A DNA stretch of 64,000 bases. It comes from Omphalotus guepiniiformis. Its lineage: Eukaryota > Basidiomycota > Agaricomycetes > Agaricales > Omphalotaceae. Made by a program: the position numbers and the translations under genes. Below the pieces are notes generated by a model that was not told where the DNA came from, ran no database searches, and was given only the letters and a program-made list of their open reading frames with translations. Location of the stretch: contig JAQOOI010000062.1 of the NCBI GenBank assembly GCA_028554645.1, positions 124,001-188,000 of the forward strand, written 5' to 3'. Shown here piece after piece: positions 3,514 through 57,639 of the stretch. How positions within the stretch are numbered: the stretch's first letter is position 1; each line of letters opens with the position of its first letter.

Positions 3514-6339
3514 TTACGCAGTCAGTGGCATCTCAAACCTCTTCTTTGACAACTGTTTGATCTCCTTAACCCCATGGAAGCACAGATAGTCATCCAGCGC
3601 ACTACAACTCTCTACACTTCTCAACGGCTCCCAAGTCTGGTCATTATCCACCCAGTAGACTTGAAACTGAAGGTACTTTCCTACCCATCTATGGCCAATG
3701 ATTGCTCTGATGACTGTTTCATCTTCAGTGTCAGTGTCTGAATCTGCATCTGAATGCCTGTTCTCGTTGGAGTGGGAGTTAGAGTCACTATCAATGTTAG
3801 CTATACCACCACTGTCATTCAGTCCCAAATGTCGAACTTGAGTTGTTTCTGCAATATCACTTTGTTCTTGTGCTGAAACCTGATGTGGCTGAATTGTTTG
3901 GGGGTGTGGGTGGAAATGGGGATGGGGATGGGGGCGAGGGCGGGGCTGTGGCTGTGGATGAAAAGAAGTAGGATGCATGGGCATCTCAATAGCTTCATAC
4001 TCCACCTCGCTATCTGACTTTGAGGTTTCAGACTCAACATCTCCTAGTGAGTTCTCACTAGCACTAGCACTCTCGATGTCTGACATGCTGCCTAGTTGTT
4101 GCTTCCCTGCCCTAGCTTGGCTGCGAGCACCTCTTCCTCGACTACCTCTCCCTCTACCACTATGTTTTCCCCGTGCCGCTTTAGCCTGTTCTCTCTCTAA
4201 CCTTGCTTTCTCTTTCGCTTTTTCCTTCTCCAGTCTTGCAACCTCCTTTGCTTTCTCTTTCTCTAACCTTGTGACCTCTTTCATTTTTTCCTTCTCTGCT
4301 TTCTTTCACCTCATCTCTTCTGCCTTCCTTTCTTTTTCGACATGTTTTTCGTTCTCCTGAATCTCCTTTCTAATTGCTCGGAAAGTTGGCTGTGCATCTC
4401 TTAGCAGCTCTGTTATTCTCTTCTTCCATACATCATATGCTAAAGCATCAAGAGTTTCTGTTGATGTCATATGACGACTGGTGTGTCCTGCATTAGCAAC
4501 ATTGTGAATTCTTGGCTTCTTGGCAAATAACTGATTGCGTAGTCGGCCGTTTTCAGCATCCATAAGTTTCATTTGAGCAAAATCACGATCAAGCTGCTTT
4601 TCTGATGCCCCAATGATTGCACGAAGGAAAGTGTTCTCCACTTGCAACGCTTGTCGTGATGCTTTAGGTGAGAGTGGTGATGGTAATTTGATTTGATAGC
4701 GAATAATGGTGTCCTCAGCTGCTGTAGATAATGAAGATGTTAGGATTGATGGAAGCTGCACAGGCAATGGCTGAGCGGGCCTTGTTGTATAATTTTTTGC
4801 TGGTTCAAAAGCAGAGCATGGAATAGCCGCACGATCAAGTGGATGGATACCAGTCTTTCGGAATGCAGCTATGATAGTAGAAGGTTTGAAAGCTTCATTG
4901 CGTGCAATGCCATAATGTTCAAGCAGGTTGTATTTGTCAACAACAATGGATTTGCGACTGAGCTGATTGACACGTTCCTATTAGACATACAGCATATGAG
5001 TATCTAATGTACTGTGTAACTATCTAGAGATGTGAACGTGCCTTCCATTTGGATGCAAGTGGTCCAAAGACTCCTACATCACATGGCTGGAGGGCATGAG
5101 TTGTGTGGGGAGGAAGACAAACTACAACAATCTGATTGTCAGCAGCAAACTTGCAGAATTTGAAGGTGCAATGTGAGTTATGCCCATCCAGAATCAGAAG
5201 GCGATGCCCATTTGTTGTGTTTCGAGCATTTGTGGTTGGTTGAAAATTCTTCTCAAGCCAAAGATATCCCAATTCCTGGTCTGTCCATCCATTGTCAGAG
5301 ATGCAGATACTAGAATTAAGAGATAGACATTAGTTTAAGATTTAGAATTGTAAGTAAATACATACCTTGCATTAGCAGAATTATTCTCACCCCATCTGAA
5401 ATCACGCCGCTTTGCCTCGAAAATGACACATGGGCGGAGGGCACTTCCATCAGCGCATACCATCTCTATAATGGTAACAAGATCTCGGCCACCATGCTCA
5501 ATTGAATTTACAGTTTTCTGATTACGGTCCACAAGCACTGCAGTGCGCTTGCCAATGCCAAGTTGAATGCCCTTCTCATCCATATTATAGATGTTTTCAG
5601 GACAAATCTCAAACTTGGTGATTATATCCTTCAACATATCAAAGAAGCCATCTACAGCAGCAGGTGTCAATGCCTTTGCCCAACACTCCTCAAGGCGGGT
5701 TGTGAGTTTCATAGCAAGATCAGGATGACGACTGCGAAAGCACTTCACCCAATTCTTGCCCATTGGTCTTCCTGCAATACTCGCAGCACAATCCATGATA
5801 GCAGAATAAGTCAAAGGAACACCACGACGGCCATGCTCCTTGATCCACTCAACAAGCACCTCCTCCTGAGAAGGCGAAAGATTCTGCAGATGAGCATGAG
5901 CCTCAGCTCGTGTATCAACACCCTTCAGTCGATCATGAAGTGTAGAATTTGGAACCAGAAAAGCCTTCGCAGCAGATCGGGTGGAAAGTGTCTTGCCGCT
6001 AGCTACAGCATGCTGAATAGCTCGAATTGCAGCTTGAATACGTGCCTCCTGATCCAACTCTTCCAGATTATTGACATCAAGATCATCTGCCTGAACAAAA
6101 ACAACAGGAGTTGAATCGGAAGATGCTGCGCCAGAGGTGTCAGGCCCAAGAGAAGTCGAGGTGCAAAAATCAGCACTGATAACAACAGCGCTAAGTGGAG
6201 CAAGAGGAGGGTTGTCGTGTAATCCAATAGAGATGTCATCAAGGAGCTCGTCTGGCTCAACAGGTACGAGATCTGGCATGTCGGTATACATAGAGTCAGA
6301 GACTGTAGAAGGAGACAAGGATAGAGTGCGAGAATTCAT
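3514..6339 (-). pseudogene. pogo/CENP-B-type DDE transposase with C-terminal chromodomain; one internal stop
   Basis: The protein is a DNA transposase that would bind the element ends and catalyse excision and integration. Exons join in frame as 6339-5366, 5309-5042 and 4977-3514 (902 codons). Exon 1 holds a psq-like HTH, a CENP-B-type HTH (segment TRAEAHAHL to RSRHPDLAMK) and the first catalytic Asp in NIYNMDEKG. Exon 2 holds the second Asp in LILDGHNSH and the third in LQPCDVGVFGPL. Intron 2 (5041-4978) must start with GC to keep frame. Exon 3 encodes the usual C-terminal tail, a Lys/Glu-rich coiled coil, an RG-rich patch, a His/Pro-rich run and then a chromodomain (GHRWVGKYLQFQVYWVD, WEPL, LDDYL). 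A TGA at 4308-4306 breaks the coiled coil while the frame continues on both sides. I chose the ATG at 6339; an upstream TTG is not needed. Confidence 0.85.
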
Positions 6340-7483
6340 AGCAGAAGTGGAAAGAGACAACAAAATTACAGAATATTGAGAAGATGTGGGCTATGAGCAA
6401 GAGATGAAGATGGTAAAGATGTTATATACCAACGAAACACCAGGCAACATGGATAGTACCAGGCTGCACTATTACTCTTTGAACTCAAACAAAGTCGTTG
6501 ATCATTGTCTCTGCTACGCCACATCATTGCACACATGAGAAACAAGAGTATTGGCATAATACTACCTAACTGTAGTAACACTTCAGCATCATCTAGACTG
6601 GAGGAAGCAATATGTAGACGTACATGAACCTTGCTCCTGTCATTTGCACACGTTGTATCATACAATATCCCTTGAATTGTGGCAGCGATTACCGGAATTG
6701 TGAAATACTATAAAGAAGATCAGCAGTATCCATGTGAGTGATCAGCGATGTGACACTCACGGATGATGTAGTCTTCTCCAAGCTTGACATTGGGTACTAC
6801 AAAGCTTGAGTACAAGTGACACAGCTGTTGGTTTGAATTGCACCTCTGAAAGCTTTCGTTGGGCAGTACATCACTCAATTAGCAGTGACTCCATATAATA
6901 GAACTCATAGACATACAAGAACCCTTTCATTGCTCACTATTCCTCCCATTCTTGCACCTCTTTGGGTGCAGAGCCTGTTCATACTATCCAGAGTAGATGG
7001 TGAATAGAGCTAGGAAAAAATTCATAAAAAATATGTTGAACAGGGATATTGTTGCAGGATACCACCCTTGAGCTGCTCATTTCGTTATAGTACACGTTGA
7101 ACATGCATGGAGGGGATTCAGAGTCAACCTTGTCTGGACCATCAGACATGCAGCAAAAAGGCAAGAAAGAGTTGAAGGTTTTCTCCACCTTAGAGTCTCT
7201 TGATTCAGGTAGGTGCGTACATTCCTCCGGCTTTCGCGATTCTTTTGAGGGTACAATGAAGGCAAGAAGTGAGGAAATGAAAAGGCGGTGGCCTCTTCGC
7301 TGGCAAGGAGATAAGGAGATTACATAATCTATGACACACTCCTCATGGCTGAACAACTCGAGTGTCCAGTATTCCTAATTATCCATCTACAAATACACTC
7401 AGGGTTCGTATAGATATCATACGACAATTTTAGATTGCAAAGGTATTCTTTACGGCCTCGCTCATGCCGCATTCCTCAAATGA
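6340..7483. other. Non-coding 5' arm of the pogo-like element
   Basis: About 1.1 kb lies between the transposase start and the right subterminal repeat. Short open frames on both strands show no domain signature. It presumably holds the transposase promoter (minus strand), but I could not point to a convincing core element. Confidence 0.5.
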
Positions 7484-15290: not shown

Positions 15291-16923
15291 ATGGGTAACG
15301 GCCAATCTCTCTTCTATCCCGATAACCCAAAGCATCGCGATCATGCTCAACAACTTGCAGACGACTGCAACAGCTACGTGAACGAGTATAACACCAAGCA
15401 TGCTGACATTGAGAAGGAGCTCGGAAAGTATAAAGAGAAGCTCGATAAAGTCCTGGCGGCTTTTGGATGCAGTAACTTGCATGAGCTTGATAGAGTCATT
15501 CAAGAGAACGCTACTGGTGCTTCGCTTCAGGACTGGAACAGGGTTAAGAACGAGTACGACCAAGCACAAGTGTATGTTCTCATGCTTGCTTGATACCAAA
15601 ATGCTGACTTGGAAAATCTCAGCGTTGACCAGGTTATTATGGAAGCAATGGGGATGTGAGCTGCTTAAGTTATTGTCTGGTTGATGTTTTGCTCACTCCG
15701 TCTAGTGTTGCTATCGCAGGATTGAGCATCAGTGCTGTTGGTGCTCTTGCGAGAGGGTTTGGTTTCTTCGCAGGCAAGCCCGTCCATAACCGTCCATAAC
15801 CCATCCGACATCTCCCTGACATGTTTTTTCTTTGCATTATAAAGGTGTTGCTGTCACCGGAGATATCCTTCTGGTTCTAGGAATCATTGGTGCTATTTTT
15901 GACGCCATTGAAGGTGCTGTCATTCGAAGCAAGCTATGTGATGCTATCAACAGGGTGAGCCCTCCAACTAGTCTTCATTCTAATTCATCATAATTGAGGA
16001 TATCTTTTAGCTGTTCAAAGACCACATCCAATGCAAACAAGTCCTTGCTCACATTGACAACCTGGCTGTATGGCTTCCTCCCCTCAGAGACATCTACGAG
16101 ACCTATGAGGAACTCGATTACTCTCCTGAGAAAATCATCGAGCGTCTCAAGAGTAAGGGTGTGATGAAGCCGCTTCAGGAGAACCTCAAGTCAGAAACAT
16201 TCTACAAGGCTGCCTCGGACCTTAACGACATAGACAAGTGGCGTGGATCTTGGACAAACGAAGATCCTAATTGGAGGTCTATTGCCAATGAGCTGGATGG
16301 CGCCAATAGCTATCATCTTGTGTCCTATAGCGCTATTTCTTCTCTGGAAGCTCCTCTGGAAGCTCATCCTCCAGTATGTGTTCCTCCTCCTTTTGAGCCT
16401 GTTGTAAGCTAATTCTGTGTTTCGTTTTTATAGCCGTACGAGGAAAACCTGAAGATTTTACTGTCCACTAGCTACCCAATGCCTTCAGCTCTACAGAAAC
16501 CACTTTATTTCACTTTGTGTGACTTTAAAGATGCAATCTCTGCTGACATTGTGATTCAGTGAGCAATGTCTCTTGTACTACTTTTGCACGCTGACTGACT
16601 ATCCTAGAACCAATGAGGGCTATACACTTGGAGTCAATGAGGAGAAGTTAGTCGTCGAATCAATCATAGACGCGGTACGTTTTATGTAACAGTCCCCTAA
16701 CTTACACACCAAATACTCATTTGGAATTCAGGTTAACTGGACTGTCGCTCTCGCTAACGAGAAAGACATCTCTCGCTTTAGCTCGAAGAAGATGGATTTT
16801 GATCCTGCGACTTTGAAGCTTGAGATCGTGCTTTCCTTCAAAGGGAAATTCATTGGTGCAAATGGTAAGCTTGTGGAGGATAGATCTCAGGCTGTGGTCT
16901 ATGTTGGAGAATACGCCCATTAA
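15291..16923 (+). CDS. Helical membrane-segment protein, tandem family member 1 (unnamed)
   Basis: Seven exons join in frame to 401 residues: 15291-15571, 15706-15773, 15845-15954, 16011-16373, 16434-16558, 16608-16674 and 16732-16923. The N-terminal 95 residues are charged and helical, likely coiled coil. Residues about 95-150 are hydrophobic (VAIAGLSISAVGALARG, then GDILLVLGIIGAIFDAIEGA), giving one or two membrane segments, followed by a long helix-rich part. The motif DKWRGSWTNEDPNW resembles DKKRDSWTNSDPTY in the gene at 19348. The C-terminal 100 residues look beta-rich and are absent from the two neighbours. Intron 2 starts with GC (GCAAGC) and must, to keep frame. I do not recognise the family. 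Helices flanking a hydrophobic hairpin recall alpha-helical pore-forming or membrane-remodelling proteins, but that is inference from layout only. Confidence 0.7.
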
Positions 16924-17393
16924 CGAGCACTTGAGCCTCGAGGTTGCAGTTTGCTTTCAGAAAATTGTATGTATATAATTCCGATATCAGTTGTAGTGAA
17001 TATGACAATCTATTTTGAGAAGACGAGCATCAAAAGGGGGCCCTCTTCGGATTCGATGCCACTCACAGGGTCGAGAAGTGGGACGAAGCTTGACCAATTG
17101 TTTAGCAACGGTCAGCTGCCTTTTACAAACTACATACTCCATCAATGGATCAATGCTCGAGTCTTCTATGCACGACCATTACATGAACACTATGGAATCC
17201 GAATAGTACCAGGCACCAAGTTTGGTTCTGACTTCCAGACTGGAAGTACATACATACTCTCCACACCACACTGGCAGTCGTGTAATTCTGAGATACGAGA
17301 AGAGATTGACCGTAAGTTTTATTACCGTTGAATCCCTGTCAAATTCTCCACTGCTAGTCATACACCTACATCAACCTGACTGCTGCGACTCGT
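16924..17393. other. Spacer between tandem family members 1 and 2
   Basis: About 470 bases without a supported gene; it probably contains the promoter of the second member. Confidence 0.5.
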
Positions 17394-18786
17394 GATGGGT
17401 AAGCCTCTCAGAGGATCTAAAATCTCTTTCTACGACTCATTGACTTATTCCGCCGACTATATGCAGTATTTTACCCAGACAACATCAAACGGCGTGACCG
17501 TGCTATGGAGCTTCAGAACGATATTGCTATTCTACAAGCACAAGCCAAGGAACAGAAAGCTGAATTAGACAAGAGCGACAAGAGAGCGTTGGCTTATATG
17601 GACGCTGCTTTAGAGAAAGAGGGCCTGAGAACGTATGATCAACTTAAAGGTTGACTCGATAGTGTTTTATCCACGGCTCAGAAAAAGGCTTTGGAAGATG
17701 TATGTGTTTTGTCTTGAGGTTTTGATTCAACTCGGTACTGATGAGTTGGAAAATGTAGCTTTATAAGAATGCCACTGTAATTCCTCATGATAACAGTGTT
17801 GCGATTGGTGTGTTCGTATTGATTATCATTCTGTCCCTTATTCTCATTCTGTTTGGAAGACTGTATCACCAAGTTTATAACTGTGGTTGGAACGATTAGC
17901 ACTGGTGGGCACTTTATGTTCTCTGGGTTGGCTGTGTACTACGAAAATCTGAAACACTTGTATAGCAATTGACTTGATCATCCTTCTCAACACTGTCAAT
18001 ATGTCCATTGTTTACCGTAACATCCAAGACGCCTTCATCATTCTTACAACAGAAGGAGTAGAAGCTGGCATCAAAGCTTTCAAGGCCATCAGTACTACCG
18101 TGAAATGGGCTGGAGGTGCGCAAGTTCTTTATTTTTATGGATATTTACTGATCATTTGGATGCAGAGGGATTGGAACAAGCCACTCGAACTGCCCAATAC
18201 GCTGCGAACACCAGTAGATTCCTAAAGACGTTGGCTATTATGGGTATATTTATGGATGCTTTTATCCTTGCTTACAATGTACGCTGGTTCACATGGCCTC
18301 GAGATAGCTCTTTGACTGACAGTGCTTATGCGAATTCCAAGGCCTATGAGGAGGGAAAACAGAGAGACAAACTCGAAGCGGCCATCAGAGGTCTATACAC
18401 AGCTCGACTCGTTGCAAAGATCTTCTCGTGCTCGTGCGATGTTATCAAGACGCTTGTGAGCACCGGTTTCGTTTCAGTTTCGTGTACATGTTGAGACTCA
18501 GAGAGAATTCTAGTCAGGATTCGTTTTAAGCTTCTTTATCGTTACGGAGTTGTGCTTCCCATAGCGGTTTGAAAGCGCTTATTTGACTGTTTCTCGTCAT
18601 TTTAAGATCATGAGCAGCTTCGTAGACTATGTCAACACCGCTACAAAAGAGATTACGACGGCAGGAACCTTGGACATGTTAGTTGTGCTGGACAAGCGAA
18701 GGAACAGTTGGACGGAAGCTGATCCAGCTTATGACACTGCTGTAAAGGAGGCGGACAATTACATGGATCATTCAGCTTCAGGGTAG
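17394..18786 (+). pseudogene. Tandem family member 2 (paralogue of the 19348 gene), with internal stop
   Basis: Exon lengths copy those of member 3: 17394-17397 (4 nt), 17467-17699 (233), 17966-18115 (150), 18166-18278 (113) and 18342-18455 (114), with 17759-17882 in place of two small exons. The 4-nt first exon (ATGG) is shared. Conserved segments are PDNIKRRDRAMELQNDI, TEGVEAGIKAF, VKWAGG and LDKRRNSWTEADP. A hydrophobic stretch (VFVLIIILSLILILFG) near residue 97 is a strong membrane segment. A TGA at 17652-17654 cuts the frame after about 61 further codons of exon 2. The exon matching member 3's 81-nt exon is also damaged (about 18514-18566). The copy is therefore probably dead, though most of it is well kept. 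Confidence 0.65.
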
Positions 18787-19347
18787 GTAGATACAATAGG
18801 AATAGCTCACAGAATAGCTCAAGAGATCTTCATAATCCACTACTTACGTAGATGCACAAAGGAGACAAAGGGACATAAGTCTTCTCAACAACTTCTCGAA
18901 AACTTCTTGTGGAACACCTTTTTTGGTGTAGTAATCAAGGTAAGTTAAGCGGTTTTGTAAGTCTCCCAAAGACCGCAATTGACCATCCATCTACCACACG
19001 TACGCAGGATCCTGACAGATTCCTAAGTAACCTCGTGGACCACCCCTACTTCTCCTTACTTCTGCTTGTCCAGAAACATTTTCACCGGAGGCGGATATCA
19101 CTCACGAGACGTTATACGATACCGGTGTTAATGAATCTCCAGAGCTCCAATGTTAATCGAGGAGCGGCCCTGCTTCTAAGCTGTCTGTCACTAAACTACT
19201 GTACTATGTGCTAAACCTCAGGCCTCTATGACACCAATCCGGGACATCTAAAATAAACCAGCAGGAAATCTTATAAGGTCAATCCAAGTATTTGCATTCT
19301 CAATATCTTCCTGATAACTGGTACACTTACCTCTGCAACTTACAATC
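18787..19347. other. Spacer between tandem family members 2 and 3
   Basis: No supported gene. The open frame at 18909-19214 has no signature and is probably chance. Confidence 0.5.
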
Positions 19348-20780
19348 ATGGGTTAGCCTGCTGCACTTCACCGTCTACCATATCTCTTGCACTGACTCTG
19401 TCCTGTCCAGTTTTCTTCCCCGACAATGTTCCACGCCGTGATCGAGCGCTTCAACTCCAGAACGACATCTCTGTCTTGCAGCAAAGTGCAGCTGAAGCCA
19501 AGAATGTGATGGACAAGGAAGACAAGCACATGGTTCCTTATATAAATAATATCCTCAAGAATAACAACATGTCGATGTTCGATGATCTGAAGAAGAAGTT
19601 GGACAATGCTTTAACTGATGAGCAGAAGCAGACTTACCGTGATGTGTGTGGCCTCTGCTTTTGGGGAGCCAAGTTGGTGACTCATACCCGGAATAACACG
19701 CTCTATAGCTTTGTGAAAATGCTTCCAAGCTGACCCAGAGAACCGATATGGCTTTGAGTGAGTCCGAATTCTCTGTGTTCCGGTTTCTTTTTTGCCTTCT
19801 TTTGACAAGTGTGCACATAGTGGCCATGAGTGGAATCCTCCTCACATCCGGTGTTCTTGCTAAGAGTAAGTATCAATATTTCTGCAACGGTAGAGTCCCA
19901 TACTGAATTCTTTACCCACCATTAGCCATTGACATTGGAAACTTCTTGAGAGCTGCCAATATCGTCACAGTATTCCGGTCTTATACTAGAGCCTTCATTA
20001 CTCTTGTGACGGAGGGAACTGAGGCTGGCATCAAGGCTTTTTGTATGGTATCTACAGTCTTTAAATGGGCTGGTGGTATGTTGGTCTCGGTGTCAATGTA
20101 TTTGGGTTTTGTTTTACTTACTACTTGTTCAGAGGGCCTAGTCGAATCCAGTCGTTTAGCCCGATACGCTGCAAATGTCGGACGAATCTTAAAGGTCCTC
20201 GCTATCGTCGGTATCTTTGCTGACACTTTCATCCTGGCCTTCGATGTGAGTCGTTCTGAAAATGAAGTATGCTGTCTTTGACAAATAACATTGACTCATC
20301 GAACAGTATTTCAAGCAGAAGGAGCAGAAGGAGAAACTTGAGAGTGCCATCAAAGAATTGTATACCTCCAGAATCATTGTCAAGATGTTTGCTTCGATGT
20401 GTGATACTATCAAGAGTCAGGTGAGCTCATAATTACTGTCCGAAATCCCTTGCAGGAAAGCTGCTTATGACGATTTTCCCCTAGGATGGAATGATGCTAA
20501 GCTACCTCATCCTTGTCGGCGATGATGGAACCATAGACCCAGACGATCAGCGAGCCGCTGACAAAGTAAGTAAAGAGGAATATTTCTTATTCAAGAATAT
20601 CATCCAACAACCTCTTTGTCGCAGATTGCCGGCAAATTTGTCACATACGTTCAAGAAGGCTGGAACGAGATTACCACCAACTCTTCCCTCGACCTTCTAA
20701 TCGTCATGGACAAGAAACGAGATAGCTGGACCAACAGCGATCCAACTTACGAAGACACTGATGAGAATGAAACAGGGTAA
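19348..20780 (+). CDS. Tandem family member 3, helical membrane-segment protein (unnamed)
   Basis: Nine exons join in frame to 314 residues: 19348-19351, 19411-19643, 19709-19757, 19821-19865, 19926-20075, 20133-20245, 20307-20420, 20485-20565 and 20625-20780. The first exon is only ATGG. Residues 1-90 form a charged helix (FFPDNVPRRDRALQLQND). A short hydrophobic stretch (MAMSGILLTSGVLA) follows, then an amphipathic section (FITLVTEGTEAGIKAF), a second hydrophobic stretch (LKVLAIVGIFADTFILAF) and a long charged helix (QKEQKEKLESAIKELY). It ends with the shared motif MDKKRDSWTNSDPTY and an acidic tail. This is the intact version of member 2 and a diverged relative of member 1. The function is unknown; no enzyme motif is visible. 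Confidence 0.7.
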
Positions 20781-22078
20781 TGAACTGCTAAAGGGCTAAT
20801 GAACAAAAACCCAAAAACAACCAAAACAATCAAGTCACTTGAAAGATGCGAGTCTGAGGGGGAGTTGTCGAAGGTTCTGCACAACCAAACTTATGGCTTC
20901 TTTATTAGAACTTTATATCTTTATCACAAGAACTTTATAGTTGAGCTTTTAAAATGCACTAAGGCAAAAAGTAGCACAAGACGGTTTTGAACAAGACAGA
21001 TGTTCACTGCACAATCACAACCAATTGACCACAAGATCAAACAACCAATTCCAATAACACAACCAGTTCAATTCAACCAACAATGATCTTTATACAATAT
21101 CGCAATAAACACCGGACTATAAACAGACCAGGGCAACTTTATGTTTTTGGTAGGATTTCCCTTCACAGGCACGATTCACGTTATAAAGACAATCCCCAGT
21201 GACCCTGTGACTCTATGGTACTCTCCTGGATTTTCTCTCTCCAAGTTACTGCCCTTTTATACATACTGCCAGTCCAAAATTAATAAAAACGGAAATTATA
21301 GCTAAACTGTCCTGTTTTATATATATACCTATATCTGTGTATGTAGGTTGTAAGTATCTGTGTCAAGTATGTACATTATTACTTGTTATAGATCTATTTT
21401 ATGAGGCAAACCTCAAAAATGCGTTTTAATCCCATTATTTTTATTGTGAGCAATATTCAGCCCCTTTATTTCATTTTTACGGATTTCCTTGACATTTCTC
21501 GGGCATCCGGGTTCCATAGGGTTAATCACCTGATAGAAATTATACCCCTCAAAGTATCACATTGTTTCGTCAAAGGAACTCCTTCAATTCAGTAGTATTC
21601 CGAGAAATTTTACTGATCGAGTTTTTACACCTCCTAACCGGTTTCTTGTCAAGCAATTTTCACCGGACAATTAATCGAAGCAAATTTCCTCGATCAACTT
21701 TTGTTCCTGGTGATTAATTAAGGAGTAAATACCCCAAAACTATTCTAGATCCATTATTTTGACTCTATTTTGCGTTCCATCCATTTTTGGTTTCCGCCGG
21801 GTTTTTATTCTTTATTGACTGGAGGAAGATGTTCCCCTAATAGTTATATGATGCAATTGACGTTGTGATGTCAGAGTTCTCGTTACAAGATTGGGTGAGT
21901 CTGATTCAACAGTGGATGGCTATTGAACACTTCTCTACATCACAACTGTACTGACTAGCCTAGAACCTTGATACACATATTGTACCGTAGGTAATAGAAC
22001 ATGCTTTATTACTCAAATCACAACACATTTTGATTGACAAGGCGGGCATCTTTCAACCCTCTATATCCCTCACTGCAA
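20781..22078. other. Intergenic region, AT-rich, no gene seen
   Basis: About 1.3 kb of low-GC sequence with many stops in all frames. No repeat pairing or RNA gene was recognised. Confidence 0.5.
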
Positions 22079-22415
22079 ATGCCTAAAATGATTAATCACC
22101 TGGCTTTTAATGCAGGTGCCGAAAATCGGCGCATCAACGCTTTGAAAAATGCAAATGACCAACTCAAAGACTCAGACGTGGGTGTTTGCTCAAGTATCGA
22201 GTACTCACTCAACTTTATTCTAAATGCATTGTTCGTAGGTGAGGAAGGTCCGAGTCACAGCTGCGCCAAAGTCCTCCAACAAGATCGCTGAGCTATATGC
22301 AACTGCAGCAGCCAACTTCGATCCTCCACCAACTTACAAAGTCGCTGCTGGACTCATCCATCTTGATGATCTCAACAAGCTTCAGATTCGAGCGCACTTT
22401 GTTCCAAACTTGTAA
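22079..22415 (+). CDS. Possible small two-exon gene, 91 aa, unknown
   Basis: Exons 22079-22177 and 22239-22415 join through a GT-AG intron and keep an open frame to the TAA at 22413. The product starts MPKMINHLAFNA, has a charged middle (RRINALKNANDQLKDSD) and an Ala-rich helical end (KIAELYATAAANF). It may be the 3' remnant of a larger gene, perhaps a distant relative of the helical family upstream, but I see no clear shared motif. Confidence 0.35.
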
Positions 22416-49943: not shown

Positions 49944-52236
49944 TCATCCCAGAATTATTTCCTTCCACACAGCTCCATCTCCAAGTGCCTCCTTCAAGTC
50001 TTCCTTCCCAATGGACCCAACTGCTACCCGCTCAGCATATCCATCATGCCAGTCAATAAGCATTGCCATATACCTCCACCCTTCCTCCTCATCGATCCTC
50101 CCATCTTTTGCTCTCTCATCCCTGCCCTCGCAAAGAAGGATGAATTCTCGCTCTAACGGAACCGCATTCTTCTCGACCCAGGCCTTCTGAACTGAAATGG
50201 TTCCTAATTCATGACCCCCTCGGCCGAATATCCCTAGACGGCACCTTGTATGCTTCGGGCCAACGTCCGCTGCCTGACTTGTCGGTGTGTCTAGTCGTAG
50301 CGTCAAGGCGACGGTCCAAAACTGCAAGAATCCTGACCCAGGCTGCTTTGATAGTATATCAACCTCATACTTGGGCGTGCCTTCCTCTAATGTTTTCAAA
50401 GTAGGCTCTGTACGCGAACAATCAAGATCTCCAAACCTTTGCTGCTTTTCGGCTGCCAAATGCTCATAGGTATGAACGAGGATACAATCGCTCGAGTCAT
50501 GGCTGAGCCGATGATACCAGATGACCCATGTCCTCTTTTGAATTGCCTTCTCGATTCGGCGAATGCTGCGGCTGTACCAATCCCATATTCGGGGGAACGA
50601 GCCTCCTTCCCAGCCAGCCCAAGACCAGCTTGGGGAATTAGGCCGCCGAGCCTGGTTAGCGAACGGGCCCCAAAGGAGGAACCAGTCGAAGTATGCTGTT
50701 GGGACTCCATGATATAGATCAGTCTTCAATTTAAAAGAGATTTCCTTCGCGATTCCAGCGAAGGCATTGTATATGTCCGAGTTGAAGGAGAGCGCGCGGG
50801 CAGAGTAGGATTGAACATGACCCTCAAACTCCCCGATGTCATCTGTATTGGGGTTCATGCTGCCCTCACCATCTGCATCTGCGTTGATCTCGAAAGTGTG
50901 CTCTTGCCACTCGCTAGCTTGGCATCGAAAAACCACTTGCCCGCCAATAAACACGAGGGATTTGGTAGCGAAATGCGTCTCTTGATACCTAGAAACGTGT
51001 TAACCATGTTGCATGAGCAAGTGATAGTGGTGGTGAGCGAAGGTTTTCTCACGTCCAACCTCGTTTTTCATAAACTGCATCCTGAAGATAATCCTGCCAT
51101 CTGGTATTGAAAGCCAGCCGAAATCCGGGAGCTATCTCCTCGATAGGCTGGCGTCGTCCTCTAGTCCCTGGATGGACACCAGCAATACCGGCAAAGGCAT
51201 CTGTACTACCTGCCGCAATAATCGCTAGGTATGACGCACTGAATACCAGATCCATCATCTTCATAGTCTGTATTCTTCTGCCTGTATTGTCCGAGTCGTC
51301 CAGGACAATACACAGACTGTCCACCCACATGTACCGCACGCCAACCTCTCTAGTTACCTGCATAGCATCCTTTATCGTCTGGGGTATCTGATTGAAGATC
51401 TCAGGCTTGTACAATGATCCAGGTTCCTCGAGCTCGCCGATGTTCGTGATAGTAGTATTGAAAAATGGTTTCCTACCCCAGACGTAACTCAAAGTCGTGT
51501 ACTGACAACCACTTGGTGGTTTGACGATACAGTTATGCTCCACGTCAATGCATCGGAAATCAGGGACTGCATTTGAATCTGTTGGATGCTGCAATCCCTG
51601 CTCCATTATGAATGGGTTCTTCCCACAAGCATTTTTGTGGTGTGTTGAACAGATTGTCAACCATCTCCGAACGAGGTCGAAGTTAATTCGATCTTCTAAG
51701 ATGGGACGGATGAAGTAGGATGTTGAAGGGATAGGGGAGTCGTTTGCGAGAAGGGTAATCTCTGGAAAGAGGTTGAGGGTACTTGATACGACAAAGCCAC
51801 CCGTGAGCTTTTTCGCATATGGTCTCAGTACTCGAATCTCTGGTACATGGTTCCAAGGTGCTTTTGGATCAGGCTTTGGACCATCGGTATTCCAGCTCAA
51901 CTGAACGAACACAGGCTCACCGTCCTCCAATTCCGGCACCTTATCGCCTCCGAGTGCCTCCAAGATTAAGCGACACAGTGGGCATTTCTCTCTTTTCACG
52001 ATGATGTCTGAAACATTGCCGAAGGAGATGCTGAGCTCGTCGGGCTTGTTTGGCTTATTCCATTCATTGTCGCCTGGTAGAACGACAAATCGCCTTGGAG
52101 TGAGGTTTAACTGCTTGCAGGTGCTGCATAACTCGTTATCGGGATGGGAAACGTCTGCAGGAATAGGAAGTAAAGGGATTGCCTCGGGAACGGGATGAAG
52201 ATTTTGTAAACTCTTCGAATCGCTGCTGAGTTCCAT
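49944..52236 (-). CDS. HET-domain (heterokaryon incompatibility) protein, copy 1
   Basis: Exons 52236-51053 and 50988-49944 join in frame to 742 residues. The N-terminal part has two Cys pairs (CSTCKQL, CPLCRL) and RRFVVLPGD. The HET domain begins at YTTLSYVWG (residues 246-254), continues through QTIKDAMQVTREVGVRYMWVDSLCI (cited in part, about 286-310), and ends near SASYLAIIAAGSTDAFAGI. The C-terminal part carries RRPNSPSWSWAGWEGG, standard in this group. HET proteins trigger cell death on self/non-self contact in ascomycetes; in basidiomycetes the role is less certain. This gene is a tandem paralogue of the one at 54509. Confidence 0.88.
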
Positions 52237-53089
52237 GGGCGCTTTGTATCGAGAGTTGTGATGAGCTCTTGAGAAGGTGAATTATTGACACTGCCAATTT
52301 ATATGAAGATCGACTCTGACATAATTATTGGTCCTGCCACGGACTAGTGACACTCATTGCAGATACAGATAAAGGTCTGATCAATGTCAGGAAGCTAAGT
52401 GACATGTTCAACGCCATGCTATTTATACTTGGTACATACATCATTGTTCCCGGCATCATTTGGAATCGCTCCTTCCGGTTTACAAAACATCTTCCAGAGT
52501 ACGGGTATCCTTTACGAATGGAAGATGCTGGGCAAGAAGAAAATATTCTAGCTTCGCAAGAGCGTTCCTTCTGGATCGACAGAGTTAGGTACATATACAT
52601 TCCTTCCATAGATCATTTCACCATTTATACGGAAACCAAATGCTGAATCAAGGTGACATCCATGTCATCGGACATCCCGTCGAGGCGGTAAATGAGACTC
52701 GTGTTGACCAGGATGCATGATAGCACGGAGTTTACCATCCCCCGACTTGCCTGAGACTTCACGATGCAATCTTCCGGAAAACGCGTTTGAAGCAACATGC
52801 ACTATCTCATTTGATGTCTATCAATCTAATAGTTAGGTCAAGATCTAACGGGGGAAACTCGAACATTTACTTACTCAGCTAGCTTCGTTGAGTAAAGTTG
52901 TTAGACAGCAGCCACGACTCGATTAGAGTTACGGGACAAATAACGGTTGAATCGAGTCTAAGGGTGTATGCGTTACACTGCAAACACAGCTGGGCCACTG
53001 CGATAAGCTTCTCAGGCTCGGTCTGCATGCGCAAGCATTGAAATGTGCCACGGACCGTTGGGGTTGAGGCTTTGAGTCATATAGATTTA
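52237..53089. other. Intergenic region between the HET genes, left part
   Basis: No gene is supported. The open frames (52325-52646 on both strands) are uninformative. This region includes the upstream DNA of HET copy 1. Confidence 0.45.
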
Positions 53090-54508: not shown

Positions 54509-56838
54509 TCATCCCAATATGAATTCCTTCCACACAGCTCCACCCCCAAGTGCCTCCTTCAAGTCCTTCTTCCCAATAGACCCCACTGCTACACGTTCAG
54601 CGTATCCCTCATGCCAGTCAATAAGCATTGCCATATATCTCCACCCCTCCTTATCGTCAATTCTCCCATCCTTTGCCCTCTCATCCCTACCTTCGCACAG
54701 AAGGATGAATTCTCTCTCCACCGGAACCGGATTCTTCTCAATCCAGGTTTTCTGAACTGCAACGGTCCCTAACTCATTCCCGCTTCGGCCGAATATCCCC
54801 AGAGCCCGTTGGTTGCCGCGTAAAAGATGCCGTGAATGCAATTTGCCAAAGTCGTCGGCATTACTTGTCGGGATGTCTAGTCGCAGGCTCAGTGCGATTG
54901 TCCAAAACTGCAAGAATCCGGACCCAGGCTGTTTTGACAGTATGTCAATCTCGTACTCAGGGGTGTCCTTCAAAGTCCTCAAAGAAGGCTCTGTGCGCGA
55001 ACAATCAAGATTTCTGAACTTGCGCTTCTTTTCGGATGTCAAACGCACCAAGCGTTGTGGATCATACTTATGCACAAGGACACAAGAACTCGTCTCGTGG
55101 CTACGCCGATGATACCAGATGACCCATGTCCTCTTCTGAATTGCCTTCTCGATTCGGTGAATGCTGCGATTATACCAATCCCATATTCGGGGAAACGAGC
55201 CTCCTTCCCAGCCGGCCCAAGACCAGCTTGGTGCATTAGGCCGCCGAACCTGGTTGGCAAGCGGGCCCCAAAGGAGGAACCAGTCGAAGTAGGCTGTTGG
55301 AACACCATGGCATAGATCAGTCTTCATTTTGAGTGAAATTTCCTTCGCGATTCCGGCGAATGCATTGTATATGTCAGAGTTTTTGGAAAGCGTTCGCTCA
55401 GAATAGGATTGGATATGACCCTCAAACTCGCCAATGTCATCTAGACCGCGCTGACTCATGCGGCCCTCACCAATTATCTCTGCTTTGGTTTCGAAAGTGT
55501 GCTCTTGCCACTCGCTAGCTTGGCACCGGAAAACGACTTGCCCGCCAATAAATATGAGGGATCGGGTAGCGAAATGCATCTCTTGGTACCTAAACAATGT
55601 GTTAGCTATGAGCTAGAATCACGTGGCGAGAAGCAAGGGGTTTCTCACGTCCAACCCCGTTTATCATAAACTGCGTCCTTGAGAAAATGCTGCCATCTGG
55701 TATTGAAGGCCAGCCGAAATCCAGGGGCTATCTCCTCGATAGGCTGACGTCGTCCTCTCGTCCCTGGACGGACACCAGCGATACCAGCAAATGCATCTGT
55801 ACTACCTGCCGCAATAATCACTAGGTATGCCGCACTGTACACCAGATCCATCATCTTGATTGCTTTCAATTTGTTCTCTTTGTTCTCTTCGTCGTTCTGA
55901 ACAATGCAAAGGCTGTCCACCCACAAATATTGGACACCAACCTCCCTAGTAACTTGCATGGCATCCTTTATCGTCTGGGGTAGTTGGTTTAAAATTTCGG
56001 CCTTGCCCAAGGATTTAGGTTCCTTGAGCTCGCCGATGTTCTCGGCAGTAGTAGTGAAGAATGATCTGCTACCCCAGACGTAACTCAAAGCCGTGTAACG
56101 ACTTCCACTGGGCGGCTCGACAACACAATTCTGATCCACGTCAATGCAACGGAAGTCAGGAACTGCATCTGGGTCTGCTGGATGATGCGATTCATGGTCC
56201 GTTATGAATGGATTTTTCCTACAAACATTTCTGTGGTGCGATGAACAAATTGTCAACCATCTCCGAACAAGGTCGAAATCAACTCGATCTTCTAAAATAG
56301 GACGAACGAAGTAGGATGTTGAAGGGACAGGTGAATCATTTGCGAGAAGGGTAATCTCTGGAAAGAGGTTGATTGATTTGACGTATCCGCCATTTAGCTT
56401 ACTCGCATATGGCACCAACATTCGGATCTCTGGTATGCGGTTCCAAGGTGCTTGTGGATCAGGATTTGGGCCATTGGTACTCCAGCTCAACTCGACATCC
56501 TCCGACTTCGGGACTTTATCTCCTCCTAGCGCCTCCAAGACCAAGCGACACAGCGGGCATGATTTTTTCCTTACAATAATGTCTGTGACATTGCCGAAGG
56601 GAATGCTCGACTCGTCAGTCTGGTTAGGCTTGTTCCCTTCCTTATCGCCTGGTAGAACGACAAATCGCCTCGGATTGAGCTTCAACTGCTTGCAGGTGCT
56701 GCAGAGCTCGTTATCAGGACGGGAAACGTCCGCAGGGACAGGAAGCAAAGCAAGTGGCTTGGGAATGTCATGGAGACTGTCAAGCGAGCTGTGGGAAGAT
56801 GATGATACTGTCTCCCAACTCTCGCTCTCGGATGCCAT
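54509..56838 (-). CDS. HET-domain (heterokaryon incompatibility) protein, copy 2
   Basis: Exons 56838-55649 and 55589-54509 join in frame to 756 residues. The layout and most residues match copy 1: CSTCKQL, CPLCRL, YTALSYVWGSRSFF, VQYLWVDSLCI, STDAFAGIAG and PSWSWAGWEGG. Differences concentrate in the N-terminal leader and in a 10-15-residue insertion before the C-terminal GIFGRSGNELG strand. The intron lies at the identical site (after RGWT). Both copies look intact, so the pair could encode different specificities. Confidence 0.88.
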
Positions 56839-57639
56839 ATTGAATACGTCTTCAAGCTGTTTCCGTTCGAGATGATATGTTCAGGTGCGTCGTCTTTTAG
56901 TGAGCTCTCGAGTTAGCGTATGCAGGTAAAATCGATGCTAACAACATGATATATCATACAACTCTCATTCACATGGAATGCATAATCATTGGTCCTGTCA
57001 AACGTCAAACTCTTATCTGATCAATGTCAGGCGTGAATGCGCTGAGAAATATCTTCGTGTCTCGTATATGCATCTACAGGGAGGATGGAAGGTTGCAGGA
57101 TGCAATATGGGTATAGAACTTCTACCTGGAACCACAGATGGCTTCTGTGGACCAGACCTAATCTGTATGTTCCTATCACAGGTCTTATTAGACTTGAGTT
57201 AGTCTGGGTCTACGGCTATATAATTGATACTACACATTCATTCTCGAGATAGCCGTCCTTCCTATTTCCCTAGACACTGAATGTTGATGCTACCAACTCA
57301 CCCACTTCCTCTTTACCAAGTCAGCGACGAGATGCGTTTTATCACATGCACGACAGCATAGTCTATCTAGCAATCTTTTTTCTACTCGATCGGATTTAGC
57401 CCAAAGAGCGAGTTGAAGTGCACCAATGCGCTTTCCATACACTCAGATTCCTGGGAAGCAACTTTCCGAATATGAAGTAAGACGCGGCTCGTCAGAACAG
57501 AATGGATCACCCTCTCAAACCTGTCTCGCACAAATGAATGTCAAGTTGGCCATAGGAAGAATCAACAATAAACACTTACGAGGCTAAAAGGTTTATTAGA
57601 TCGGGCTTAGTACTAGGAGTAAGTGATAATAATTACTGA
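56839..57639. other. Intergenic region, no gene seen
   Basis: Upstream DNA of HET copy 2 and 3' flank of the DUF6533-like gene; no open frame with a signature. Confidence 0.45.

What the first reader, a model, noticed from the sequence alone, without database searches (positions are those of the whole stretch)
15291..20780. Three tandem genes of an unnamed helical membrane-segment family
Three same-strand genes share a design: a charged N-terminal helix, one or two hydrophobic segments, a second hydrophobic segment, a long amphipathic helix and the motif DK-[KRW]-R-x-SWT-x-x-DP. Members 2 and 3 keep identical exon lengths (4, 233, 150, 113 and 114 nt) and a 4-nt first exon; member 1 adds a C-terminal beta-rich part. 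No enzyme motif is visible. Helices around a hydrophobic hairpin suggest membrane insertion or pore-like behaviour, which would fit a defence or competition role, but this rests on layout alone.
Basis: partly seen in the sequence, partly recalled or inferred. Interest (0 to 1): 0.75.

Follow-up and report, generated by a model that had tools for sequence, protein, structure and literature searches.

The report
Paired membrane-anchored mushroom proteins, partly broken
This stretch of a mushroom-forming fungus's genome carries one intact and two damaged genes of an unnamed two-gene family whose proteins look built to sit in or pierce cell membranes, perhaps for defence or cell death; what they do is not yet known.

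Summary
The family is real, but the window holds one intact gene, not three. Gene 1 (A type, 15291-16923, 412 aa) is intact. Genes 2 and 3 are B type. Gene 2 has an in-frame stop and lacks recognisable exons. A and B are homologous, each one side of a tree branch (100/99). They bear consecutive locus tags in Pleurotus ostreatus and Antrodiella citrinella, apparently share a contig in P. eryngii, and sit in one gene model in Tephrocybe rancida: a conserved two-gene module without a Pfam family. All 22 A proteins begin M-G-x-x-x-S, the N-myristoylation consensus; none of 16 B proteins does. In A the hydrophobic hairpin is well conserved (67% mean identity), the C-terminal part, predicted as a beta-trefoil, far less (24%). 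Best reading: a myristate-anchored A protein and its homologous partner B insert helices into membranes from the cytosol, with the trefoil as variable recognition part. Lipidation, assembly, permeabilisation and defence are inferred, not shown.

The parts
15291..16923 (+). Gene 1, A type, intact, 412 aa; exons 15291-15571, 15623-15655, 15706-15773, 15845-15954, 16011-16373, 16434-16558, 16608-16674, 16732-16923; third intron is GC-AG
   Evidence: Splice model; 49% identity over 100% of its length to P0001; the same GC donor is present in the own-genome paralogue (by reading)
15291..15308 (+). N-myristoylation consensus M-G-N-G-Q-S of gene 1
   Evidence: M-G-x-x-x-S in 22 of 22 A proteins, 0 of 16 B proteins
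15623..15927 (+). Gene 1 glycine-rich hydrophobic stretch (about residues 94-155, introns included)
   Evidence: Hydropathy; conservation; in the model of P0003 helices 94-108, 114-120, 124-150, with pLDDT under 50 at 114-153
16434..16923 (+). Gene 1 C-terminal part, beta-trefoil by alignment with the modelled homologue
17395..18786 (+). Gene 2, B type, broken: in-frame TGA at 17652-17654; stretches matching residues 82-110 and 236-262 of P0022 not found
19348..20758 (+). Gene 3, B type, 307 codons up to the insertion; exons 19348-19351, 19411-19643, 19709-19757, 19821-19865, 19926-20075, 20133-20245, 20307-20420, 20485-20565, 20625-20758
20759..22136 (.). Solo LTR (TGATG...CATCA ends) inside gene 3; supplies the stop codon at 20778-20780
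   Evidence: 1261-base probe: 42 rows in the genome with 40 of 135 candidates scored; 36 other copies cover the whole probe at 93-98% identity; five same-strand pairs 13.3-13.4 kb apart and one 14.9 kb; ends from comparison with three copies
22137..22412 (+). Remnant of gene 3's C-terminal end beyond the LTR, with a PPPxY motif
   Evidence: tblastn of P0022 residues 344-376 at 22293-22391, E 1.5e-4; B profile hit in open frame 22239-22412, E 3.8e-4; 22137-22238 by eye only

Best explanation
Genes 1 and 3 (with the decayed gene 2) are the two halves, A and B, of a conserved two-gene module of mushroom-forming fungi. The A protein is probably N-myristoylated and held on the cytosolic face of a membrane; its glycine-rich hydrophobic hairpin inserts; its fast-diverging C-terminal beta-trefoil serves as recognition or trigger part. 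The B protein has the same helical core, with one strong and one weaker hydrophobic segment, and lacks the anchor; it probably joins A in a hetero-oligomer. The likeliest outcome is regulated permeabilisation of a membrane of the fungus's own cell (defence or cell death). Shown by computation: homology of A and B, pairing in several genomes, the motif, the conservation pattern. Supported by a model of middling confidence: the trefoil. Inferred: myristoylation itself, the hetero-oligomer, permeabilisation, defence.
For: A and B profiles match over 250 columns, hhalign probability 99.4%, E 1.1e-21; each is one side of a branch, 100/99. Pairing: of 4 named assemblies that gave both an A and a B hit, P. 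ostreatus (PTI98_006813/006812) and A. citrinella (EUX98_g49/g50) have consecutive locus tags; P. eryngii has both on contigs of the same length (828,723), taken as one contig; P. djamor has them on contigs of different lengths. T. rancida P0037 holds A plus a divergent B half (hhalign 98.4%, E 7e-15). M-G-x-x-x-S in 22 of 22 A, 0 of 16 B. Mean pairwise identity of 21 A proteins: hairpin 67%, helical part 53%, trefoil 24%. PPxY in 7 of 22 A and 9 of 16 B, shuffle means 0.43 and 0.15 (relatedness not controlled).
Against: No Foldseek match at E <= 0.001 for the A model in PDB or BFVD; most of the hairpin (114-153) has pLDDT under 50 and the model pTM 0.47; the B model failed, pLDDT 35. Only 8 of 16 B proteins show two hydrophobic segments, and gene 3 shows one above 1.6. 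No biochemical, expression or localisation data were found. Some genomes gave A but no B (four Infundibulicybe gibba A proteins, for example), so A may act alone; the word-based searches miss distant B proteins, though. In this genome both B loci are broken while gene 1 is intact.
Confidence: 0.34

Rival explanations
1. A defence toxin of the mushroom-lectin kind: made without signal peptide, stored in the cytosol and released when the hypha is eaten; the beta-trefoil binds a target of the predator and the helical part pierces its membrane.
For: C-terminal part predicted as beta-trefoil, the fold of mushroom defence lectins and protease inhibitors (search listing with abstract starts of PMC3355094 and PMC9104457); an Agaricomycete toxin with four trefoils plus an effector domain exists (PMC13324453, abstract and passages). 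The trefoil diverges much faster than the helical part.
Against: An invariant N-myristoylation consensus has no obvious role in an ingested toxin. No QxW lectin repeat in the trefoil. The trefoil is single and no such part is seen in B.
Confidence: 0.24
2. A resident membrane scaffold or membrane-shaping pair of mushroom hyphae (for example at septa or vesicles) without toxic action.
For: The named hits are mushroom-forming fungi; a conserved hydrophobic hairpin plus myristoyl anchor would suit a scaffold; weak PADLOC LeoBC matches (6 of 10 A proteins, E 5.8e-5 to 4.5e-3) align with the later part of that profile (that LeoBC is a dynamin-like protein is recalled), though no P-loop is present in the 38 fetched proteins, gene 1 or gene 3.
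Against: Copy decay here: two B loci and a second A locus are broken, which is unexpected for a structural component. Fast trefoil divergence.
Confidence: 0.26
3. A remote branch of the ClyA-like two-component alpha-pore-forming proteins (XaxAB/YaxAB type).
For: Two adjacent homologous helical components with a hydrophobic element inside a helical part; in YaxAB only A binds membranes and then recruits B (PMC6162564, passages).
Against: No convincing sequence match to solved structures: joint A+B profile one row, lysozyme, E 0.061; B profile none; gene 1 and gene 3 products best E 0.55 and 0.065, to unrelated proteins. No structural match at E 0.001 for A. A trefoil and a myristoyl motif are not mentioned for that family in the passages read.
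Confidence: 0.1

Closest known systems
ClyA-like two-component alpha-pore-forming toxins (XaxAB/YaxAB)
   Same: Two homologous, adjacent helical components; hydrophobic element between helices; asymmetry in membrane binding is plausible
   Different: No sequence or significant fold match found; here an N-myristoylation motif and a C-terminal beta-trefoil; no hydrophobic N-terminal signal by hydropathy; named hits all fungal
HeLo / MLKL-like fungal cell-death domains (PMC9815663, passages)
   Same: An intracellular helical bundle that acts on a membrane of the own cell would be the same logic
   Different: No Pfam match in the proteins scanned one by one; mid-protein hydrophobic hairpin instead of an expelled N-terminal helix; amyloid motifs were not looked for
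Mushroom beta-trefoil proteins (lectins, cocaprins, CCTX chimerolectins)
   Different: No QxW repeats in the trefoil; trefoil joined to a helical membrane part; a homologous partner gene
Pleurotolysin / ostreolysin (aegerolysin plus MACPF; recalled)
   Same: Two-component membrane-attacking pair in Pleurotus
   Different: Beta-structured (recalled); no aegerolysin or MACPF match in the proteins scanned one by one

Membership tests
ClyA-like alpha-PFT (XaxAB/YaxAB) | Five-helix bundle core with membrane-active part between helices 4 and 5 (PMC6162564, passages) | tested here: inconclusive
   The A model is helical over 13-275 with a hydrophobic hairpin, but pTM 0.47 and no significant match; the VIA-align rows cover mainly the trefoil
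ClyA-like alpha-PFT (XaxAB/YaxAB) | Two separate components that assemble together | tested here: inconclusive
   Homologous genes, adjacent in several genomes; assembly not testable here
ClyA-like alpha-PFT (XaxAB/YaxAB) | Forms pores in target membranes | not testable with these tools
   Needs protein
HeLo/MLKL-like | Match to HeLo or Helo-like Pfam profiles | tested here: not met
   Absent at E <= 1 for gene 1 and gene 3 products and ten homologues, and at E <= 0.1 for ten, eight of them new; not in the 25 of 46 families shown for 22 members
Aegerolysin/MACPF | Match to the Pfam profiles | tested here: not met
   Same; 25 of 46 families shown
Ricin-type beta-trefoil lectin | QxW repeats in the trefoil (recalled) | tested here: not met
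   Of 38 fetched proteins 6 hold any QxW; the one nearest a trefoil is P0017 at 286, just ahead of it; gene 1 has one at 80, in the helical part, gene 3 none
Beta-trefoil fold | Three-fold beta-trefoil | tested here: met
N-myristoylated protein | M-G-x-x-x-S/T N-terminal consensus (recalled) | tested here: met
   22 of 22 A, 0 of 16 B
N-myristoylated protein | Myristate actually attached | not testable with these tools
   Needs mass spectrometry or labelling

The most novel reading that the evidence does not exclude
A eukaryotic, self-directed two-component alpha-helical membrane-permeabilising system: a lipid-anchored sensor subunit with a fast-evolving beta-trefoil and a co-assembling partner from the next gene, acting as a cell-death or antiviral/anti-predator executioner across mushroom-forming fungi, and no branch of HeLo/MLKL or aegerolysin/MACPF.
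Probability: 0.15. Interest if true: 0.85.

Novelty: new variant of a known kind. Interest (0 to 1): 0.5.

Why it matters
An uncatalogued gene pair found in Agaricales and Polyporales (orders recalled), with a lipid-anchor motif, a well conserved hydrophobic hairpin and a variable recognition-like domain, is a testable candidate for a fungal membrane-acting defence or cell-death system. Pairs in Pleurotus ostreatus make it testable in a laboratory strain. For this genome the lesson is caution: two of the three 'tandem genes' are broken, one by a retrotransposon end.

Tried and rejected
Rejected: three functional tandem genes (gene 2 has a stop and missing stretches, gene 3 an LTR). Rejected as support: two HET-domain genes about 30 kb away need not be connected. 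Not found: a prokaryotic relative of the A type; 591 stretches of genome contigs matched one of two peptide patterns but none encodes a relative by tblastn (the B type was not scanned). Set aside as hydrophobic-composition matches: Pfam DUF92 (8 of 22 members, best E 2.9e-4, 20.7 bits against a cut-off of 27.5), DUF6861, SseC, DUF2304 and others; every Pfam match listed with its cut-off for a family member lies below it. LeoBC matches in PADLOC (7 of 22 members, 6 of 10) are kept only as a lead.

Foldseek against PDB and BFVD: no match with E <= 0.001; ClyA-like, HeLo and other pore-formers are absent from the VIA-align list, which says nothing about them. Paper searches for nine protein or locus names and the motifs FYPDNP and SWTNEDP returned no paper, so within that library nothing was found in print under those terms; searches gave background only. 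A first codon count between gene 1 and the paralogue (dN/dS 0.32) included frame-shifted codons and was replaced (0.23 over 374 codons).
Full report
What is there. The window lies in a 42.5-Mb genome (G000:C60:124001-188000). Splice-site inspection and homologues give gene 1 (15291-16923) eight exons and 412 aa. Its third intron has a GC donor, seen also in a paralogue in the same genome (by reading). The DK-x-R-x-SWT-x-x-DP motif is present in all three.

Only gene 1 is intact. Gene 2 has an in-frame TGA at 17652-17654, and tblastn with the P. ostreatus B protein P0022 finds residues 2-81, 111-159, 148-235 and 263-314 there but not 82-110 or 236-262; gene 3 gives 2-80, 95-198 and 199-311. Gene 3 runs at 20759 into a repeat that ends at 22136. 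A 1261-base probe from it gives 42 rows in the genome, its own included; 40 of 135 candidates were scored, so this is a lower bound. Besides its own, 36 rows cover the whole probe at 93-98% identity, five are partial; five same-strand pairs lie 13.3-13.4 kb apart and one 14.9 kb, the pattern of LTR-retrotransposon ends. Here it is a solo LTR; the 4 bases on either side differ at one position, fitting a slightly worn target duplication (by eye). The LTR supplies the last codons and stop of the '314-aa product'. A C-terminal piece with a PPPxY motif lies beyond it (tblastn 22293-22391, E 1.5e-4; profile hit in frame 22239-22412, E 3.8e-4). Splicing around the LTR cannot be excluded without RNA.

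Other copies in the genome. Searches with gene 1, gene 3, P0001, P0033 and P0019 found four family loci, all on contig 60: the three here and an A-type copy at C60:47.17-48.77 kb; one further row, C67 at E 0.77, I count as chance. The copy lacks the first 15-20 codons and has a one-base frame shift. Over 374 codons it and gene 1 show dS 0.56, dN 0.13, ratio 0.23, so coding constraint acted during much of their divergence.

Relatives. Gene 1 found 20 proteins, gene 3 found 16 (all with E below 1e-50), none with a precomputed Pfam domain. Named A hits come from Antrodiella, Pleurotus, Infundibulicybe, Coprinopsis, Hohenbuehelia, Mycena, Flagelloscypha, Punctularia, Gyrodon, Arthromyces, Asterophora and Tephrocybe; named B hits from Pleurotus, Antrodiella, Gelatoporia and Gautieria; P0008, P0034 and P0036 are unnamed JGI contigs. 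That these genera are Agaricomycetes is recalled. A third search with a joint profile gave 15 rows and added P0037 and P0038. These searches go by shared words, and only the candidates sharing most words were scored, so the numbers are lower bounds. A pattern scan of bacterial and archaeal genomes for the A type gave no relative.

Two types, one module. The A and B profiles align over 250 columns at 99.4% probability. In a tree of 33 rows A (20) and B (12) are each one side of a branch, support 100/99; P0037's second half and P0038 are long branches and unsure; I left out P0006 and P0012 of A and P0024, P0025, P0027, P0029, P0032 and P0036 of B as fragments, near-copies or odd models. In P. 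ostreatus the types bear consecutive locus tags (PTI98_006813, PTI98_006812), in A. citrinella too (EUX98_g49, g50); in P. eryngii they lie on contigs of equal length, taken as one; in P. djamor on contigs of different lengths. In T. rancida one 847-aa model holds an A protein followed by a divergent B, either a fusion or two neighbours merged by annotation.

Anatomy. All 22 A proteins (gene 1, P0001-P0020, P0037) begin M-G-x-x-x-S and fit the myristoylation pattern, which I recalled; none of 16 B proteins does, though 6 of these do not begin at the usual start (P0027, P0029, P0032, P0034, P0035, P0036). Hydropathy peaks at 2.13-2.60 in each of the 22 A proteins, around residues 94-159; of the 16 B proteins 8 show two separate stretches at 1.6 or more and 8 show one; gene 3 has one at 2.27 and a weaker one at 1.57. 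Mean pairwise identity in 21 A proteins is 67% in the hairpin and 53% in the whole helical part (210 of 210 pairs each), 24% in the C-terminal part (136 of 210 pairs with 40 or more shared columns) and 14% in the linker (22 of 210 pairs). A hairpin more conserved than the rest is not what a mere anchor would need. PPxY motifs occur in 7 of 22 A and 9 of 16 B proteins against shuffle means of 0.43 and 0.15; eight of the nine B proteins are from Pleurotus ostreatus, pulmonarius, djamor, cornucopiae or eryngii and the ninth, P0029, is a second model of P0022's locus, so these are few independent events.

Mechanism. I commit to an intracellular, membrane-inserting A-B pair, with A lipid-anchored and bearing a variable recognition-like trefoil, and permeabilisation as the likeliest act. 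The pairing, homology, motif and conservation are computed; lipidation, assembly, permeabilisation and a defence or cell-death role are inference. YaxAB, where only A binds the membrane and then recruits B (PMC6162564, passages read), is the closest working analogy. Membership in that family is untested in the decisive respect. A stored anti-predator toxin and a harmless membrane scaffold remain serious rivals.

Novelty. No Pfam match above cut-off among the proteins shown, no convincing solved relative by sequence, no paper in the library under the names or motifs tried. The family seems undescribed; what kind of machine it is stays open.

Noticed in passing
window 20759-22136: Solo LTR of a high-copy element; 36 other full-probe copies at 93-98% identity, five same-strand pairs 13.3-13.4 kb apart.
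   Followed up: partly
window 51049-52281 and 55645-56880, minus strand (open frames continue at 49944-50999 and 54509-55612): Two neighbouring, similar genes with HET (heterokaryon incompatibility) domains, PF06985 E 3.2e-23 and 2.4e-28.
   Followed up: no
G000:C60:47170-48769 (L028:4171-5770): Second A-type copy, 5'-truncated with unrelated sequence upstream and a one-base frame shift.
   Followed up: yes
P0037 (Tephrocybe rancida, 847 aa): A and a divergent B in one gene model: a real fusion or merged neighbours.
   Followed up: partly
tree: The Pleurotus A and B proteins group with those of Antrodiella and this genome, away from Hohenbuehelia (recalled as the same family as Pleurotus): transfer between lineages or old paralogy.
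   Followed up: no
A proteins P0008, P0010, P0013, P0015, P0016, P0019: Weak PADLOC LeoBC matches (best E 5.8e-5) over the helical stretch and hairpin, 6 of 10 scanned; no P-loop.
   Followed up: partly
window 5335-6390, minus strand: Remains of a Tc5/DDE-type transposase gene (HTH_psq, HTH_Tnp_Tc5).
   Followed up: no
P0005, P0006, P0007, P0012: Infundibulicybe gibba has at least four A proteins, two on contigs of the same length, and no B among the hits.
   Followed up: no
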